NCBI RefSeq assembly: GCF_001886715.1
Contig: NZ_CP018082.1
Location: 5,332,001 to 5,396,000 of the forward strand
Source: Nocardia mangyaensis
GTDB lineage: Bacteria > Actinomycetota > Actinomycetes > Mycobacteriales > Mycobacteriaceae
Length of the DNA: 64,000 nucleotides
Reading direction: 5' to 3'
Positions 8,642 through 14,193 of the stretch are shown piece after piece. How positions within the stretch are numbered: position 1 is the stretch's first letter; each line of letters opens with the position of its first letter. A model generated the notes under the pieces. It was not told the DNA's origin and ran no database searches. It saw nothing but the letters and a program-made list of their open reading frames with translations. The translations under genes were made by a program, and so were the position numbers.

Positions 8642-9526
8642 ATGACGACCACGACGCCGCTCCGCGGCCCGATGCTCCATCCGCGGGTGATCACCTTGGT
8701 TCGCCCGTCGGGCACGGTCCAGCTGGGCTGGGACCCCGAACGCGCGCTCCTGCTCGAAACCCACGAACTCGACACGCGCACGGTGCTCGCGTTCCTGCGG
8801 CTGCTCGACGGACTACAGTCGCGACCGCAGATCATCTGGCGGGCGGGCGAATTCGGGATCACTCCCGAGCGCACCGGCACCCTGCTCGCCGCGATCGAGG
8901 CGGCGGGCCTGCTGCTCGAACCCGAACGCGGGCACGGCCGGATCCGGGCGATCACGGTGCACGGCCTCGGCCCGCTCTCGGACGCGGTGTCGATCGGCCT
9001 GCGACGCATGGGCCTTCGGCCCGCGCGTTCCCGTCCGCATCGCCGGGATGCGCTGGTGGCCGCCACGAAGTGCGATCTGATCGTGCTCGCCGACGCGCTG
9101 ATGATCGATCCACGACTCTCGGTGGACCTGGTGTTGCGCCGGATTCCGCATCTACCCGTCCGGGTGCGTGACGGTGTGGGGGTGGTCGGGCCCCTCGTCC
9201 TGCCGGGCGAGACCAGCTGTCTGCGCTGTGCCGACCTGACCCGCGCCGGATTCGACGCCGACTGGCCACACCTGGCGGCACAGCTGCTCGGACGCACCGG
9301 GCACGCGTCCCCGGCGGGTGTCGCGGCCACGGCGGCGCTGGCCATGGGCGAGTTGGAGGCGATCGTCGCGTGCTCCCCGCGCCGGCGCCCCGGCACGCTC
9401 GACGCCACCGTGGAATTGGACCTCGACACCCATCAGGTGCAGCGGCGACCCTGGCCGCCACACCCGGAGTGCGGGTGCCGCACGCTGACTCCGCGGGCCT
9501 CGCAGACCTCGGAGGCGGCCGGATGA
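8642..9526 (+). CDS. Cyclodehydratase/TOMM leader-binding type protein (Rv3196-like)
   Basis: A 294-residue cytosolic protein related to the C/ocin-ThiF-like partner proteins of thiazole/oxazole-modified microcin (TOMM) synthetases. The N-terminal ~90 residues may form a small winged-helix leader-binding fold. A Rossmann-like ThiF remnant follows. The family signature is VGVVGPLVLPGETSCLRCADL, with a first CxxC, and a late RRPWPPHPECGC with a CxC, probably a structural zinc. There is no nearby YcaO gene or evident precursor peptide, so its real partner is unknown. It lies between the zincin-like and ABC1 kinase genes, an order kept in mycobacteria, which argues for a housekeeping rather than a peptide-antibiotic role. 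Confidence 0.7.
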   Translation: MTTTTPLRGPMLHPRVITLVRPSGTVQLGWDPERALLLETHELDTRTVLAFLRLLDGLQSRPQIIWRAGEFGITPERTGTLLAAIEAAGLLLEPERGHGRIRAITVHGLGPLSDAVSIGLRRMGLRPARSRPHRRDALVAATKCDLIVLADALMIDPRLSVDLVLRRIPHLPVRVRDGVGVVGPLVLPGETSCLRCADLTRAGFDADWPHLAAQLLGRTGHASPAGVAATAALAMGELEAIVACSPRRRPGTLDATVELDLDTHQVQRRPWPPHPECGCRTLTPRASQTSEAAG

Positions 9527-9585
9527 GCGCCCGGTGTGAGCATTCCCATGGCACACAGGCCCCTGATTCGGCCATGATGGGTAAC

Positions 9586-10926
9586 GTGTCCGAGATCGTG
9601 CGCCGCAGTTCCAGCCGCAATGCCAAGTTGGCCAAAATTCCACTCGGCATCGCGGGTCGAGCCGCCGTCGGGTTCGGCAAGAAGCTCGTCGGTGGTGACA
9701 AGCAGGAGATCAACGCGACGCTGAACCAGAAGGCCGCCGAGCAGTTGTTCACCGTGCTCGGCGAGCTCAAGGGCGGGGCGATGAAGTTCGGCCAGGCCCT
9801 GAGTGTGATGGAGGCCGCCGTCCCGGAGGAGTTCGGCGAGCACTACCGCGAGGCGCTGACCAAGCTGCAGGCCGCCGCACCGCCGATGCCCGCCGAGACC
9901 GTGCACCGGGTGCTCGACCAGCAGCTCGGCACCAAGTGGCGCGAGCGCTTCGAGTCCTTCGACGACACCCCCGCCGCCTCGGCCAGTATCGGCCAGGTGC
10001 ACCGGGCGGTGTGGTCGGACGGGCGCGCGGTGGCGGTGAAGGTCCAGTACCCGGGTGCCGACGAGGCCCTGCGGGCCGACTTGAAGACGCTGTCGCGGAT
10101 GACCGGACTGCTGTCGTCGGTGATTCCCGGCGCCGATGTGAAGCCGCTGCTGGCCGAGATCACCGAACGCACCGAGGAGGAGCTCGACTACCGCATCGAG
10201 GCCGCCAATCAGCGCCGTTTCGCCGCGGCGTTCGACGGGCATCCGCAGATCACCGTGCCGAAGGTGGTGGCCGGTGCACCGAAGGTGATCGTCACCGAAT
10301 GGCTCGAGGGCACCCCGGTCTCGGCGCTGATCAAGGCGGGCGCCGAGGACCCCGAGGGCACCCGAGCCCAGCGCAATCGGATCGCCGAGCTGATGGGCAC
10401 CTTCCACTTCTGCTCTCCCGAGCTGGTCGGCCTGCTGCACAGCGACCCGCACCCCGGCAATTTCCTGGTGCAGGCCGACGGCAAACTGGCCGTGCTCGAC
10501 TTCGGCGCCTGCGCGCCGATGCCCGACGGTTTCCCCGAGGTCCTCGGCCGGATGCTCGCTCTCGCCGTCGCCGAGGACCACGCCGCGCTCACCGAGTTGC
10601 TCTACGAACACAACTGGGTCATCCCGGGCCGCACGGTCACCCACGAGGAGATCGAGGCCTACCTCCTCCCCTTCAGCGACCCCATCCGCACCGACACCTT
10701 CCACTTCACCCGCACCTGGATGCAGCGGGTCGCGGGCACCGCCTCGGAGTTCTCCAGCCCGGAGATGAAAACCGCCCGCGCCCTGCAACTTCCGGCCGAA
10801 TACCTGATGATCTTCCGCGTCCTCGGCGGCTCGGTCGGCATCCTGGCCCAACTCGACGCCGAACTGGGCTTCATGAGCTTGGTCCGCACCTGGGTCCCCG
10901 GCTTCCGCACCGAACGCGCCTCCTAG
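9586..10926 (+). CDS. ABC1/AarF (UbiB-like) atypical kinase, Rv3197-like
   Basis: A 446-residue protein of the ABC1/AarF/UbiB atypical kinase family. Features from GTG 9586: the family KxGQ element (K67-F-G-Q70, in LKGGAMKFGQALSVMEAA), an Ala-rich nucleotide loop (AASASIGQVH), Lys152 in AVAVKVQYPG, then HSDPHPGNF and the metal-binding DFG in VLDFGACAPMP. The mycobacterial orthologue sits next to whiB7 and has been linked to macrolide tolerance; that role here is inference. Starts at ATG 9574 or 9577 are equally possible, because no site has a strong Shine-Dalgarno. It converges on whiB7. Confidence 0.88.
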   Translation: MSEIVRRSSSRNAKLAKIPLGIAGRAAVGFGKKLVGGDKQEINATLNQKAAEQLFTVLGELKGGAMKFGQALSVMEAAVPEEFGEHYREALTKLQAAAPPMPAETVHRVLDQQLGTKWRERFESFDDTPAASASIGQVHRAVWSDGRAVAVKVQYPGADEALRADLKTLSRMTGLLSSVIPGADVKPLLAEITERTEEELDYRIEAANQRRFAAAFDGHPQITVPKVVAGAPKVIVTEWLEGTPVSALIKAGAEDPEGTRAQRNRIAELMGTFHFCSPELVGLLHSDPHPGNFLVQADGKLAVLDFGACAPMPDGFPEVLGRMLALAVAEDHAALTELLYEHNWVIPGRTVTHEEIEAYLLPFSDPIRTDTFHFTRTWMQRVAGTASEFSSPEMKTARALQLPAEYLMIFRVLGGSVGILAQLDAELGFMSLVRTWVPGFRTERAS

Positions 10927-11079
10927 GCGGACCGACCGCACCGGCTCCACTCGTCCAGGCCACCGACGGCACCTACTCCTGCCAGACGGCCGCAACACCG
11001 ATGGTGGGCGTACACCCCGGACACCACCACCTGGCCGTCGCCGACGACCACACCGTCACACGCGACGCGCGGAAACGAC

Positions 11080-11118
11080 AAGCGAACCGCCCACCAGAAC
11101 GCGGTGAGCGGTTCGCTT
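11080..11118 (-). terminator. Intrinsic terminator of whiB7
   Basis: Perfect 11-bp stem (AAGCGAACCGC and its complement) with a 17-nt loop, followed on the minus strand by GTCGTTTCC. It lies 24 bp after the whiB7 stop and may also act on the opposing kinase transcript. The rest of the 215-bp gap shows no gene. Confidence 0.65.
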
Positions 11119-11141
11119 GCGGTACAACCCTTTTCCCGGGT

Positions 11142-11465
11142 TCATGCCGAGATCGCGACCTTGCGCGGACGACCACGGGGGCGCTTGCGGGCGATCACGA
11201 CACCCTGGTCGAAGATCTCACCGCCCCACACACCCCACGGCTCGGCGCGGTCGATGGCCGCGGTCAGGCAGCCCTTGCGGATCGGGCAGGCAGCGCACAA
11301 CTGCTTGGCCTGCTCGAGATCGGTGGGGCTCTCGGCGAACCACAGATCGGGGTTTCCGGCCCGGCAGGGCAGGGTCCTGGTGACCTCACGGACGCGAGGG
11401 CTCTGCGCCACGGTTCGGCATGTCACGTCAGTAGTGGCCGACGGCCAGTCCTGGGCGGTGAACAC
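11142..11465 (-). CDS. whiB7: WhiB7, redox-sensing regulator of intrinsic antibiotic resistance
   Basis: A 107-residue WhiB protein. Four Cys that bind the [4Fe-4S] cluster are visible: LPC, then CAACPIRKGC (C-x2-C-x5-C). The EPWGVWGGEIF turn contacts the sigma factor, and the C-terminal RGRPRK AT-hook is specific to WhiB7 and binds A/T-rich DNA next to -35 boxes. GTG 11465 is chosen because AAGGAG lies 6 nt before it. The longer in-frame start at 11555 sits inside the attenuator hairpin and would not be a natural start. Known role: with the primary sigma factor it activates its own promoter and resistance genes when ribosomes are inhibited. Confidence 0.95.
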   Translation of the reverse strand: MFTAQDWPSATTDVTCRTVAQSPRVREVTRTLPCRAGNPDLWFAESPTDLEQAKQLCAACPIRKGCLTAAIDRAEPWGVWGGEIFDQGVVIARKRPRGRPRKVAISA

Positions 11466-11548
11466 GTCGTTCTCCTTCAGCTCGTTTGCAGCGGTCGTGG
11501 TGTTCGTGTGCGAACCCGGTGCCAACGGCTGAGGAGCCGAAATAACAA

Positions 11549-11583
11549 TGGCCACGGAATTCGCTTCTCGCGATCCGTGGCCA
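11549..11583 (-). terminator. Attenuator hairpin in the whiB7 leader
   Basis: On the minus strand a 10-bp stem (TGGCCACGGA / TCCGTGGCCA) with an inner TCGC/GCGA stem is followed by TTGTTATTTC, the form of an intrinsic terminator. It lies about 84 nt before the whiB7 start and 19 nt after the stop codon of an upstream ORF. This arrangement is that of the ribosome-controlled transcription attenuators known for whiB7/wblC leaders: antibiotic-stalled translation upstream should favour read-through. Confidence 0.8.
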
Positions 11584-11602
11584 GGAGGTCGGGGAGTGTT
11601 CC

Positions 11603-11926
11603 CTACCTAGTTCGACATCTGTGTCGAGACCTGTTCACGGTCGCTGGGTGGACGCGGAGGCGGGTTGCGCCGACGAAAGCCGGTGCGTATCCGGCTTCCT
11701 CGGCGGGTGCTGCCGGTGCCGAAACGGCGGCCGGCTGCCAACCCACGCTGGGCTTGTCCTGGAGACGAATCGGGGTGTGCTGATGCATGACAGTCATCGG
11801 CACAGCGGTGGTATCGACGCCGGACAGACCGGTCCCCTGCAGAGCGAGGACCCCCCGGGAGGCGGACACCATGAATTCGTTCACCAGGACGCGATTGCCC
11901 GCGTCGAACGTGGTGTTGCTGTTCAT
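11603..11926 (-). CDS. Upstream ORF in the whiB7 leader (107 codons), probable regulatory ORF
   Basis: The first ATG of the predicted whiB7 transcript, preceded by a very strong Shine-Dalgarno site (AGGAGGGAGGC, about 8 nt away). The predicted product of 107 residues has no recognised domain: a polar N-terminal half, an Ala/Pro stretch (AAVSAPAAPAEEAG), and an Arg-rich end (NRSRHRCRTR). Its stop lies 19 nt before the attenuator. It may be the regulatory uORF of whiB7, unusually long for that role, or a small protein in its own right. The strong ribosome site argues that it is translated; function is not known. Confidence 0.55.
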   Translation of the reverse strand: MNSNTTFDAGNRVLVNEFMVSASRGVLALQGTGLSGVDTTAVPMTVMHQHTPIRLQDKPSVGWQPAAVSAPAAPAEEAGYAPAFVGATRLRVHPATVNRSRHRCRTR

Positions 11927-11967
11927 CTGACTGCCTCCCTCCTGAACTCGTGTGCTGACAATTACCG

Positions 11968-11991
11968 CGCACCGAGATCACTCTCGGTGCG
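11968..11991 (-). other. 5' hairpin of the whiB7 leader RNA
   Basis: Perfect 9-bp inverted repeat (CGCACCGAG / CTCGGTGCG) with a 6-nt loop. From the predicted start site near 11993 it would form at the extreme 5' end of the leader, where it could stabilise the RNA or take part in the switch. Confidence 0.5.
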
Positions 11992-11999
11992 TGTTCTCC

Positions 12000-12036
12000 A
12001 CCATAGGCAATGATCGAGAACCGAACAACCTATTTT
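12000..12036 (-). promoter_or_regulatory. WhiB7-dependent promoter of whiB7
   Basis: On the minus strand: AAAAT (12036-12032), 3 nt, -35 TTGTTC (12028-12023), 17-nt spacer, -10 TATGGT (12005-12000). An A/T-rich element 3 nt before the -35 is the known binding site of the WhiB7 AT-hook, so this is an autoregulated promoter. It lies just after the uvrD2 stop codon, and the predicted leader to the whiB7 start is about 525 nt. Confidence 0.8.
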
Positions 12037-14193
12037 CTACCTGCGGTTTTGTGTCGTGGCCCGCATCCGAGACGCGACGATGGCGAGCACGTCGGCGCCG
12101 TACTGTTCGATCTTCTTCGGACCGACGCCCGCGATGGCCGCCAGCGCCGTGTCGTCGGCGGGCAACTGCTCGGCGATGGCGGTGAGGGTGGTGTCGGTGA
12201 AGACGACGAAGTCGCGCACCCGCAGCACCTCGGCCTTCTCGGCCCGCCATTCCTGCAGTGCCTCGAGCAGAGCCGGGTCGTGCTCACCGGGACAGCGGCG
12301 ACAGCGGCCGAGCATGGTCGCATAGGTGCCGATCAGCGGTTTCGCGCACACCCGGCACAGCGGGCGCTTGCCGTCGGCGTCCTTGGGGCCGGTCGCGGTG
12401 GCGGCGATCCGGGAGGCGGGCGAGTCGTCGGGAACCAGGCCGTTGAGGAAGCGCGAACGTCTGCGCACGCGTCGACCGCCCTCGGTCCTGGCCAGCGACC
12501 AGGACACCGCGAGGTGTTCGCGCGCCCTGGTGACGCCGACGTAGAGCAACCGGCGCTCCTCTTCCAGCCCCGCCTGGTCCGATGGACTGCCGTCATCGCC
12601 GAGCACGTGCTGAATGGGCAGGGTGCCGTCGCTGACGCCGACCAGGAACACCGCGTCCCATTCCAGCCCTTTGGCCGCGTGCAGCGAGGCCAGGGTGACG
12701 CCGTCGACGGTCGGCGGATGCTTGGCCTCGGCCCGGATGGCGAGCTCGCGCAGCAGCCCGGTGAGATCGATCTCGGCATCGTGGCCGACCAGTTCCTCGG
12801 TGAGCTGGACCAGCGCGAGCAGCGAGGACCACCGCTCCTTGGCCTGCGCACCCGCCGGTTCCTCCGCGGTGAGCCCGACCGGCGCCAACACGGCCCTGAC
12901 CAGGGTGATCAGTTCGGCGCCGCTGCGCGACTCGTCGGGTAGATCGTCACGCGCGTCGGCTTGGCGCAGGGCCTGTACCGCCTGGCGGACCTCCTGCCGC
13001 TGGAAGAACCCCTCGCCGCCGCGCACCTGGAAAGGGATGTCGCGGTCGTTGAGCGCCTGCTCGAACGGCTCGGATTGGGCGTTGATCCGGTAGAGCACCG
13101 CGATCTCGGCGGCCGGTGTGCCCGCGGCGATCAGCTTCTTGATCCGGCCCGCGACGGCGGCGGCCTCGGCGGGCACATCGGGATACTCGGCGAACTCCGG
13201 TTCCGGACCGTCCGCGCGCTGGCCGATCAGTGCCAGCCGGGTGCCCGCGATGCGGCCGCGCGCGGCGCCGATCACCCGGTTGGCCAGCGAGACCACCTGC
13301 GGGGTCGAGCGGTAGTCGCGCTCGAGCCGGATCACCGTGGCGTCGGGGAAGCGCCGGGAGAAGTCGAGCAGGTAGTTGGGGGTGGCGCCGGTGAAGGAGT
13401 AGATCGTCTGGTTGGCGTCGCCGACGACAGTGAGGTCGTCGCGCTCGCCCAGCCACGCGTCGAGCACCCGTTGCTGCAGGGGTGTGACGTCCTGATATTC
13501 GTCGACGACGAAGCTGCGATAACGACCGCGGAACTCGTCGGCGACGGCCGGATAGTCCTCGAGCGCCGCGGCGGTGTGCAGCAGCAGGTCGTCGAAGTCG
13601 AGCAGTAGACCGTCGGCGGAGGTCTTCAACGATTCGTAGCCCGCGTAGACCTGGGCGACCCTGGCCACATCGACCGGCGCGTCGCGGTGATGCCTGGCGG
13701 CGGCGGCCGGATAGTCCTCCGGTGCGATCAGCGAGGCCTTGGACCATTCGATCTCGCTGAGCAGGTCGCGCACCAGTTCGGTGGAGTTGCCCAGGCCCGC
13801 GCGGTTCGCCGCCTGGGCGACCACCGGGAACTTGCTGTCGAGCAATCGCCACGGCACGTCACCGACGACCTGCGGCCAGAAATAGCGCAGCTGCCGCAGG
13901 GCCGCGGCGTGGAAGGTGCGCGCCTGCACCTGACCGGCCTCGCCGCCGAGGCCCATCGAGCGCAGGCGATTGCGCATCTCCCCCGCCGCACGCGCGGTGA
14001 ACGTCACCGCGAGCACCTGATCGGCCTTGACGTGTCCGCCCGCGATCAGATGCGCGATCCGATGCGTGATCGTCCTGGTCTTGCCGGTCCCGGCACCGGC
14101 GAGCACACACACCGGCCCCCGTGGTGCCCGCACCGCGGCGGCCTGTTCCGGGTCGAGGGCGGTGAGATCGAGTGCTGGCACGCGCACCATCAT
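12037..14193 (-). CDS. uvrD2: UvrD2, superfamily-1 DNA helicase with tetracysteine and HRDC domains
   Basis: A 718-residue ATP-dependent 3'-5' DNA helicase of the UvrD/PcrA/Rep group. Walker A is GAGTGKT (33-39), motif [14 protein letters not shown], motif [18 protein letters not shown], motif [18 protein letters not shown] zinc-type tetracysteine module (CRVC...CRRC) and a C-terminal HRDC domain ([21 protein letters not shown]) make it the actinobacterial UvrD2 form rather than UvrD1. Known role: DNA unwinding in repair and replication. Two adjacent ATGs (14193, 14190) with GGGGG upstream are the likely starts. Same strand and order upstream of whiB7 as in mycobacteria. Confidence 0.93.

What the first reader, a model, noticed from the sequence alone, without database searches (positions are those of the whole stretch)
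11466..12036. Complete readable whiB7 control leader: autoregulated promoter, long uORF and attenuator
Seen in the sequence: AAAAT next to -35 TTGTTC, 17-nt spacer, -10 TATGGT; a 5' hairpin; an ORF with a very strong ribosome site; then a 10-bp stem followed by a U-rich tract 19 nt after the ORF stop; and whiB7 at GTG 11465. Known: WhiB7 activates its own promoter, and whiB7/wblC leaders attenuate transcription until ribosomes stall on an upstream ORF. The long leader (about 525 nt) predicts induction by ribosome-targeting antibiotics in this host.
Basis: partly seen in the sequence, partly recalled or inferred. Interest (0 to 1): 0.72.

Follow-up and report, generated by a model that had tools for sequence, protein, structure and literature searches.

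The report
Gated RNA leader controlling whiB7
Upstream of a Nocardia antibiotic-response gene lies the known kind of ribosome-sensing RNA switch, and comparison of relatives suggests that it carries two further gates, one on each ribosome-binding site, that have not been tested.

Summary
WhiB7 (11142-11465, -) has a promoter abutting the upstream helicase gene, a 5' hairpin, a strong-SD 107-codon uORF (11926-11603) and a terminator 19 nt after its stop. The class of mechanism is known: whiB7/wblC uORF attenuation.

Added here: (1) The antiterminator arm is GCGACCGUGAACAGG (uORF codons 95-99); across other genera this arm follows the terminator (42 agree, 1 disagrees, 12 lack the motif, of 55). 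(2) The uORF, present in 117 of 117 Nocardia leaders, is conserved partly as RNA: branch tests support a helix hiding the uORF's own SD (P2), a hairpin (P3) and a hairpin at its end (P6). (3) The terminator's 3' arm has a downstream partner (P9) whose sequence changes with it between genera. In Nocardia it competes with a helix hiding whiB7's SD (P11): modelled opening costs 3.8 kcal with the antiterminator, 9.5 with the terminator.

Best reading: a three-gate leader (uORF initiation, uORF elongation, whiB7 translation). The elongation gate is nearly certain; the others are predictions, and the SD gate failed in Mycobacterium. A new variant of a known kind; the two central papers (Lee 2022; Burian and Thompson 2018) were not read.

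The parts
12000..12036 (-). Predicted WhiB7-type promoter: AAAAT 12032-12036, -35 TTGTTC 12023-12028, -10 TATGGT 12000-12005
   Evidence: sequence; AAAATAGGTTGT, each base in at least 75% of 117 Nocardia leaders; strict pattern once in this genome
11968..11991 (-). 5' hairpin, 10 bp with a 4-nt loop
   Evidence: fold; hairpin also in RNAalifold of 117 leaders; covariation not tested
11933..11943 (-). uORF Shine-Dalgarno AGGAGGGAGGC; 11933-11939 is the 5' strand of helix P2
11603..11926 (-). uORF, 107 codons, ATG to TAG
   Evidence: found in 117 of 117 Nocardia leaders; named homologues mostly called hypothetical protein; no Pfam match
11857..11863 (-). P2 3' strand GCCUCCC (about uORF codons 22-24), complementary to the uORF SD
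   Evidence: 111-117 of 117 paired at each of 7 pairs; 4 same-branch double changes, all 4 kept pairing, null P 0.0015
11831..11852 (-). P3 hairpin inside the uORF
   Evidence: 11851:11832 (A-U 60, G-C 42) scores highest among the base-pair-compatible pairs listed in the whole-leader scan; 7 double changes, 6 kept, null 0 of 2000
11751..11830 (-). Possible P4, 11822-11830 with 11751-11759
   Evidence: conserved, but not supported by covariation (P 0.11)
11630..11644 (-). Antiterminator (AT) 5' arm, codons 95-99
   Evidence: pairs 11570-11585; covaries between genera
11612..11627 (-). P6 hairpin at the uORF end, inside the AT loop; overlaps the rare arginine codons
   Evidence: 5 double changes, 4 kept, null 0 of 2000; codons
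11586..11608 (-). P7 hairpin containing the uORF stop
   Evidence: RNAalifold; covariation not significant (P 0.70)
11570..11585 (-). AT 3' strand, overlapping the terminator 5' arm
11549..11583 (-). Intrinsic terminator hairpin T
   Evidence: 12 pairs, each kept in 108-117 of 117 Nocardia; core also in 40 of 42 class-level leaders
11540..11548 (-). U-rich tract
   Evidence: sequence
11510..11564 (-). P9: terminator 3' half 11555-11564 with 11510-11518
   Evidence: 9 pairs, each kept in 108-117 of 117; 102 of 102 in the best 5% of shuffles; partner changes with the terminator between genera
11472..11536 (-). P11: 11528-11536 with the whiB7 SD region 11472-11481
   Evidence: no informative double changes within Nocardia
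11142..11465 (-). whiB7 (107 aa, GTG start)
   Evidence: Pfam PF02467, E 1.2e-14

Best explanation
This is the whiB7 ribosome-sensing attenuator of a Nocardia, built as an RNA with three serial gates. Gate 2 (known kind): a ribosome in about the last 17 uORF codons covers the antiterminator arm (codons 95-99) or sits in the 44-nt loop that the antiterminator must close; the terminator then forms and transcription stops. A ribosome held upstream of about codon 89, or no ribosome at all, lets the antiterminator capture the terminator's 5' arm before its 3' arm is made, and whiB7 is transcribed. Gate 1 (new, inferred): the uORF SD is open only until RNA polymerase makes codons 22-24, which pair with it (P2), followed by hairpin P3; slow initiation closes the SD and pushes the leader towards ON. 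Gate 3 (new, inferred): with the antiterminator formed, the freed terminator 3' arm pairs downstream (P9), which competes with the helix hiding whiB7's SD (P11); leaked transcripts with the terminator formed keep that SD hidden. Shown by computation: the pairings, their conservation, part of their covariation, and energies. Inferred: ribosome footprints (size recalled), kinetics, induction, effect on protein output.
For: Many synonymous sites in the conserved uORF blocks are fixed, e.g. TCC 116/116, GGG 110/110, CTC 111/111, GTG 117/117; the commonest codon holds 0.88 at 27 conserved uORF codons against 0.77 at 69 whiB7 codons (one-sided P 0.007). Helix-level branch tests: P2 4 double changes, 4 kept (P 0.0015); P3 7 and 6, P6 5 and 4 (both 0 of 2000); slid partners keep 0-2. 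AT across other genera: 36 C:G and 6 T:A agree, 1 exception, 12 without motif, of 55 (37, 1 and 11 of 49 distinct sequences). Before the terminator 3' arm is made its 5' arm is held upstream with probability 0.79 against 0.50 with a shuffled tail (37 Nocardia, about a third of 117). P9: mean -22.1 against -11.9 kcal shuffled, 102 of 102 in the best 5%; Rhodococcus 13 of 16; own partner better than other genera's in all three groups. whiB7 SD opening 3.8 (AT) against 9.5 kcal (T), higher with T in 105 of 106; shuffled control 7.3 (53 of the 106). uORF SD opening 3.3 before and 7.6 kcal after about codons 21-36 are made, up by more than 1 kcal in 104 of 117; shuffled 5.0.
Against: Duplex energy does not single out the AT arm: 8 of 102 Nocardia, 3 of 16 Rhodococcus and 0 of 19 Mycobacterium in the best 5% of shuffles, and in the swap control the Nocardia terminator arm pairs no better with its own leaders than with the other two genera (which left out the bases 5' of GGCC that belong to AT). 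At equilibrium the terminator wins (mean P(T) 0.72, this window 1.00), so AT must act by timing; in the window P(AT) before the 3' arm is only 0.52. The SD gate is not supported in Mycobacterium (6 for, 8 against, of 19), and P11 beats shuffles in only 65 of 102 Nocardia, 4 of 16 Rhodococcus and 5 of 19 Mycobacterium. With a wider SD window and longer 3' end, SD openness differed little (0.16 against 0.23 in Nocardia; 0.13 in both states for this window). Shuffles close the uORF SD as much in 21% of cases. P11 has no informative changes; slid P3 partners also show 2-6 double changes; P4, P7 and AT fail the within-genus test. P9 and P11 might coexist as a pseudoknot.
Confidence: 0.7

Rival explanations
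1. A plain whiB7/wblC attenuator: only the uORF, AT and T matter; P2, P9 and P11 are by-products of GC-rich sequence and shared ancestry.
For: Published accounts need only uORF, terminator and antiterminator (passages). P11 shows no informative changes and the SD gate is not seen in Mycobacterium.
Against: P2 and P3 have compensating changes beyond the branch null, and slid partners keep few; the P9 partner changes with the terminator between genera.
Confidence: 0.4
2. The uORF encodes a conserved functional or arrest peptide, and codon conservation is secondary.
For: Peptide blocks like ASRGILALQGIGLS, QDKPxxGWHP and ATVIRSRHR recur in most of the 117 Nocardia uORFs; homologues are annotated as proteins.
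Against: Fixed synonymous sites within the blocks and covariation that crosses codons: 11851:11832 pairs codon 26 base 1 with codon 32 base 2; no Pfam match. Some block codons do vary, e.g. Ala 28 and Leu 29, in or near the P3 loop.
Confidence: 0.1
3. The rare arginine codons at the uORF end are the main device: they hold the ribosome over the AT loop and set the default OFF state.
For: Rare codons make 47% of the last 10 against 9% in the rest of the uORF and 4% in 25 window genes; AGA/AGG/CGA are 504 of 548 Arg codons there in Nocardia and 32 of 51 in Rhodococcus.
Against: The same bases build P6, P7 and the AT end, so codon choice may be forced by pairing; only 8 of 23 Arg codons in Mycobacterium.
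Confidence: 0.35

Closest known systems
whiB7/wblC uORF attenuators (Lee, Lee and Roe 2022; Burian and Thompson 2018; Dinan 2014)
   Same: long leader, strong-SD uORF, Rho-independent terminator after it, antiterminator shared between uORF and terminator, whiB7 downstream
   Different: here the arm is placed and shown to follow the terminator across genera, and helices on the uORF SD (P2) and on the terminator 3' arm and whiB7 SD (P9, P11) are proposed; the Lee and Burian papers were not read, so overlap with them cannot be excluded
Antibiotic-resistance leaders with both transcription and translation attenuation (vmlR of Bacillus subtilis)
   Same: two layers of control in one leader (seen only as a title in the reference list of PMC12421871)
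   Different: another gene in another phylum; not compared by sequence here
ilvB1 attenuator of Mycobacterium tuberculosis (PMC13236596, passages)
   Same: ribosome position selects terminator or antiterminator
   Different: control codons are for branched-chain amino acids in a short uORF; here, by inference, stalls over most of a 107-codon uORF count

Membership tests
whiB7/wblC uORF attenuator | downstream gene is WhiB7 | tested here: met
   PF02467; EPWGVWGGE and RKRPRGRP present
whiB7/wblC uORF attenuator | strong-SD uORF in a long leader | tested here: met
whiB7/wblC uORF attenuator | intrinsic terminator between uORF and gene | tested here: met
   (sequence and fold; termination not measured)
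whiB7/wblC uORF attenuator | antiterminator joining uORF and terminator 5' arm | tested here: met
   duplex energy alone not above shuffles
[quoted passage not shown]
   no expression data
whiB7/wblC uORF attenuator | promoter activated by WhiB7 | not testable with these tools
   motif only
Rfam families (release 15) | match to a described RNA family | tested here: not met
   window 10000-14000: five matches at E up to 5, none at its gathering score, best E 0.13
leader with combined translation attenuation of whiB7 | whiB7 SD sequestration that changes with the AT/T state | tested here: inconclusive
   supported by energies in Nocardia and Rhodococcus, not in Mycobacterium

The most novel reading that the evidence does not exclude
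The whiB7 leader is a concerted three-gate RNA: it senses failure of initiation on the uORF (P2/P3), failure of elongation (AT/T), and carries the decision forward to whiB7 translation through P9/P11, so that existing whiB7 mRNA can be silenced again once uORF ribosomes run to the end. This would make the leader a reversible stress monitor, not a one-time switch.
Probability: 0.3. Interest if true: 0.78.

Novelty: new variant of a known kind. Interest (0 to 1): 0.52.

Why it matters
WhiB7 sets intrinsic resistance to ribosome-targeting drugs in many actinomycetes. A 2025 paper states that it had not been tested whether antibiotics stall ribosomes in the whiB7 uORF (PMC12121999, passage). Placing the antiterminator arm predicts which stalls count (codons up to about 89 give ON; stalls in about the last 17 codons, rich in rare arginine codons, give OFF), and the SD helices add two predictions that a reporter or probing experiment can decide.

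Tried and rejected
P4 (11822-11830 with 11751-11759) and an alternative pairing of 11824-11831 with the terminator 5' arm: conserved, no convincing covariation. P7: not significant. AT by duplex energy or swapped partners: no better than controls. AT by pairing-based search: helices of 7 or more bp in 72 of 97 leaders with a core, 25 shorter, and outside Mycobacteriales often not at the expected place; the three-way tally (95 of 108 with a paired partner) chose the partner by pairing and is not used as a test. SD gate in Mycobacterium: not supported. Peptide-level conservation as sole cause: disfavoured by synonymous fixation. Unbiased covariation scan: only 9.5% of the top 400 pairs are base-pair-compatible, below the 16.7% background, so most high scores there are phylogenetic noise; the listing showed compatible pairs only. 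I rely on named helices with branch tests; the helices were proposed from the same sequences, so these tests are not fully independent. Regulon search by promoter pattern: only the whiB7 promoter matched, so it says nothing about other targets.

Rows dropped: the genus genome without a match (G054); six Nocardia leaders without the exact whiB7 SD motif and five more (identical, or no usable terminator core), leaving 106 of 117; leaders were examined (12 Nocardia, one of them a second fetch of G003, and 114 others), 3 gave no uORF and 11 no terminator core. Named Nocardia loci L172-L190 were left out of the comparisons. One search took 20 genomes of my choosing; with the 22 loci they make the 42, out of 103 class-level genomes with a match.

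Full report
Observation. The promoter abuts the stop of a UvrD-type helicase gene with an HRDC domain (uvrD2 is a recalled name). By WhiB7 identity the nearest named relatives listed are Nocardia caishijiensis and N. coubleae, 94%, so the host is a Nocardia.

Conservation. 117 of 118 sampled genomes of the genus carry whiB7, and a strong-SD uORF was extracted from all 117 leaders. The recurrent peptide blocks are shared by most; block 1 is degraded in a few (L066, L071, L079, L081). Within the blocks many synonymous sites are fixed: TCC in 116 of 116, GGG 110 of 110, CTC 111 of 111; others vary, such as Ala 28. At 27 conserved uORF codons the commonest codon holds 0.88, against 0.77 at 69 conserved whiB7 codons (one-sided P 0.007). 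The uORF is therefore conserved partly as RNA. Of 41 homologous proteins found, those with a name are called hypothetical or uncharacterized, one with a second name. No Rfam family reaches its gathering score in 10000-14000.

Antiterminator. RNAalifold on leaders cut before the terminator 3' arm gives a long helix between uORF codons 95-99 (11644-11630) and the terminator 5' arm (11585-11570), enclosing hairpins P6 and P7; with the 3' arm present it gives the terminator. AT pairs are kept in 93-117 of 117 Nocardia apart from one constant mismatch, so they are hardly testable within the genus. Among 114 other leaders, 55 have GGCCACGGAx...CCGTGGCC. I looked 35-80 nt upstream for NTCCGTG, whose core is by design the complement of the terminator, without using N to choose: N matches x in 42 (36 C:G, 6 T:A), mismatches in 1, and the motif is missing in 12; for 49 distinct sequences 37, 1 and 11. 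The species are related, so these are not independent events. Duplex energy and swapped partners do not favour the AT arm. Before the 3' arm is made, the 5' arm is held upstream with probability 0.79 in 37 sampled Nocardia leaders against 0.50 with a shuffled tail, and 0.82 against 0.61 in 97 others, where a quarter of shuffles do as well. At equilibrium the terminator wins, so the choice must be kinetic.

Deep conservation of the terminator. The core GGCC[A/G]CGG...CCG[T/C]GGCC, or a close variant, is found in 112 of the 126 leaders examined (12 of 12 Nocardia, 100 of 114 others) and in 40 of 42 further class-level leaders, including 7 of 7 of one genus of 7-to-10-Mb genomes, Streptomyces-like by my inference.

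Helices inside the uORF. On a tree built from flanking sequence only, branch tests give P2 (uORF SD with codons 22-24) 4 double changes, 4 kept, P 0.0015; P3 7 and 6, 0 of 2000; P6 5 and 4, 0 of 2000. Partners slid by 1-3 nt keep 0-2, although slid P3 still shows 2-6 double changes. P4, P7 and, within the genus, AT fail. The pair 11851:11832 (A-U 60, G-C 42) scores highest among the compatible pairs listed in the whole-leader scan, which is noisy. The 28-base element around P3 is found once in each of 47 of 59 genus genomes at up to one mismatch, with none for the reversed control. The modelled cost of opening the uORF SD rises from 3.3 to 7.6 kcal once about codons 21-36 are made (117 leaders; 1.7 to 8.1 in the window), against 5.0 with that stretch shuffled; 21% of shuffles close it as much.

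Downstream of the terminator. The terminator 3' half (11564-11555) can pair with 11518-11510 (P9), each pair kept in 108-117 of 117 Nocardia, where GCGAAA faces TTTCGC. In the 55 other leaders the four bases 5' of CCGTGGCC are GGAT in 21, CGGA in 24, CGAA in 6 and other in 4; downstream, CGGATC is found in 14 of the 21, [C/A]GGTTCG in 16 of the 24 and CGGTTCG in 5 of the 6, and in the motifs listed (up to six per leader) neither class shows the other's partner. P9 is in the best 5% of shuffles for 102 of 102 Nocardia, 13 of 16 Rhodococcus and 8 of 19 Mycobacterium leaders; within Nocardia it has 2 double changes, 1 kept. In Nocardia 11536-11528 can pair with the whiB7 SD (P11; best 5% in 65 of 102; Rhodococcus 4 of 16, Mycobacterium 5 of 19). 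P9 and P11 interleave and so compete unless they form a pseudoknot.

Gate 3 energies. Opening the SD core costs 3.8 kcal in the AT state and 9.5 in the T state in Nocardia (T higher by more than 0.5 in 105 of 106); Rhodococcus 2.9 and 5.1 (13 for, 1 against, of 16); other Mycobacteriales 4.1 and 5.4 (10 for, 3 against, of 19); Mycobacterium 3.8 and 3.4 (6 for, 8 against, of 19). With the terminator loop and 3' arm shuffled, the AT value is 7.3 in 53 Nocardia; the share of shuffles that open as easily is 0.09 in Nocardia, 0.17 in Rhodococcus, 0.33 in other Mycobacteriales and 0.42 in Mycobacterium. With a wider SD window and a longer 3' end the difference in openness was small. Gate 3 is thus a prediction that depends on the model.

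Ribosome logic (inferred). With a footprint of about 15 nt either side of the P site (recalled), ribosomes up to about codon 89 leave the AT arm free; those from codon 90 to the stop cover it or sit in the 44-nt AT loop. The last 10 codons hold 47% rare codons against 9% in the rest of the uORF, and 504 of 548 Arg codons there are AGA, AGG or CGA. These bases also build P6, P7 and the AT end, so cause is unresolved. From codon 51 to the 14th before the end, 22% of residues are alanine (10 of 44 in the window's codons 51-94); whiB7 induction by alanine starvation in mycobacteria is reported by Poulton 2024, which I know only through other papers.

Known and new. Passages read in PMC10727445, PMC9618640, PMC11550727, PMC4128351, PMC13236596, PMC13393426, PMC12421871 and PMC12121999 describe the uORF alone or with terminator and antiterminator for whiB7/wblC. 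In the searches made (listings) and in these passages I saw no account of P2, P9 or P11; Lee 2022 and Burian and Thompson 2018 were seen only as references and not read. I file this as a whiB7/wblC attenuator with proposed extra gates.

Noticed in passing
G000:C1:288115-288141 (locus L295): A second place in the genome matches the terminator-core pattern, a 27-base inverted repeat not linked to whiB7.
   Followed up: no
uORF 11603-11926; P0041: One distant uORF homologue (Nocardia kruczakiae) carries in one source a name beginning Excreted virulence factor EspC, probably a misannotation of a regulatory uORF.
   Followed up: no
L161, L166, L171, L239: Distant, non-Nocardia leaders carry [C/A]AGGGGA(CC/TT)GGT in the uORF, like the P3 3' strand of Nocardia.
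   Followed up: partly
G119-G121, G130, G149-G151, G157, G169, G170, G175; G054: Eleven of 61 sampled genomes of the family lack a WhiB7 match, all in four genera; one of 118 genomes of the genus also lacks it.
   Followed up: no
L034: A Nocardia leader in which the uORF stops early, 6 nt before the terminator core, yet keeps the antiterminator codons.
   Followed up: no
9370-10926 (+): An ABC1-type kinase gene runs convergently towards whiB7 and ends 215 bases from it.
   Followed up: no
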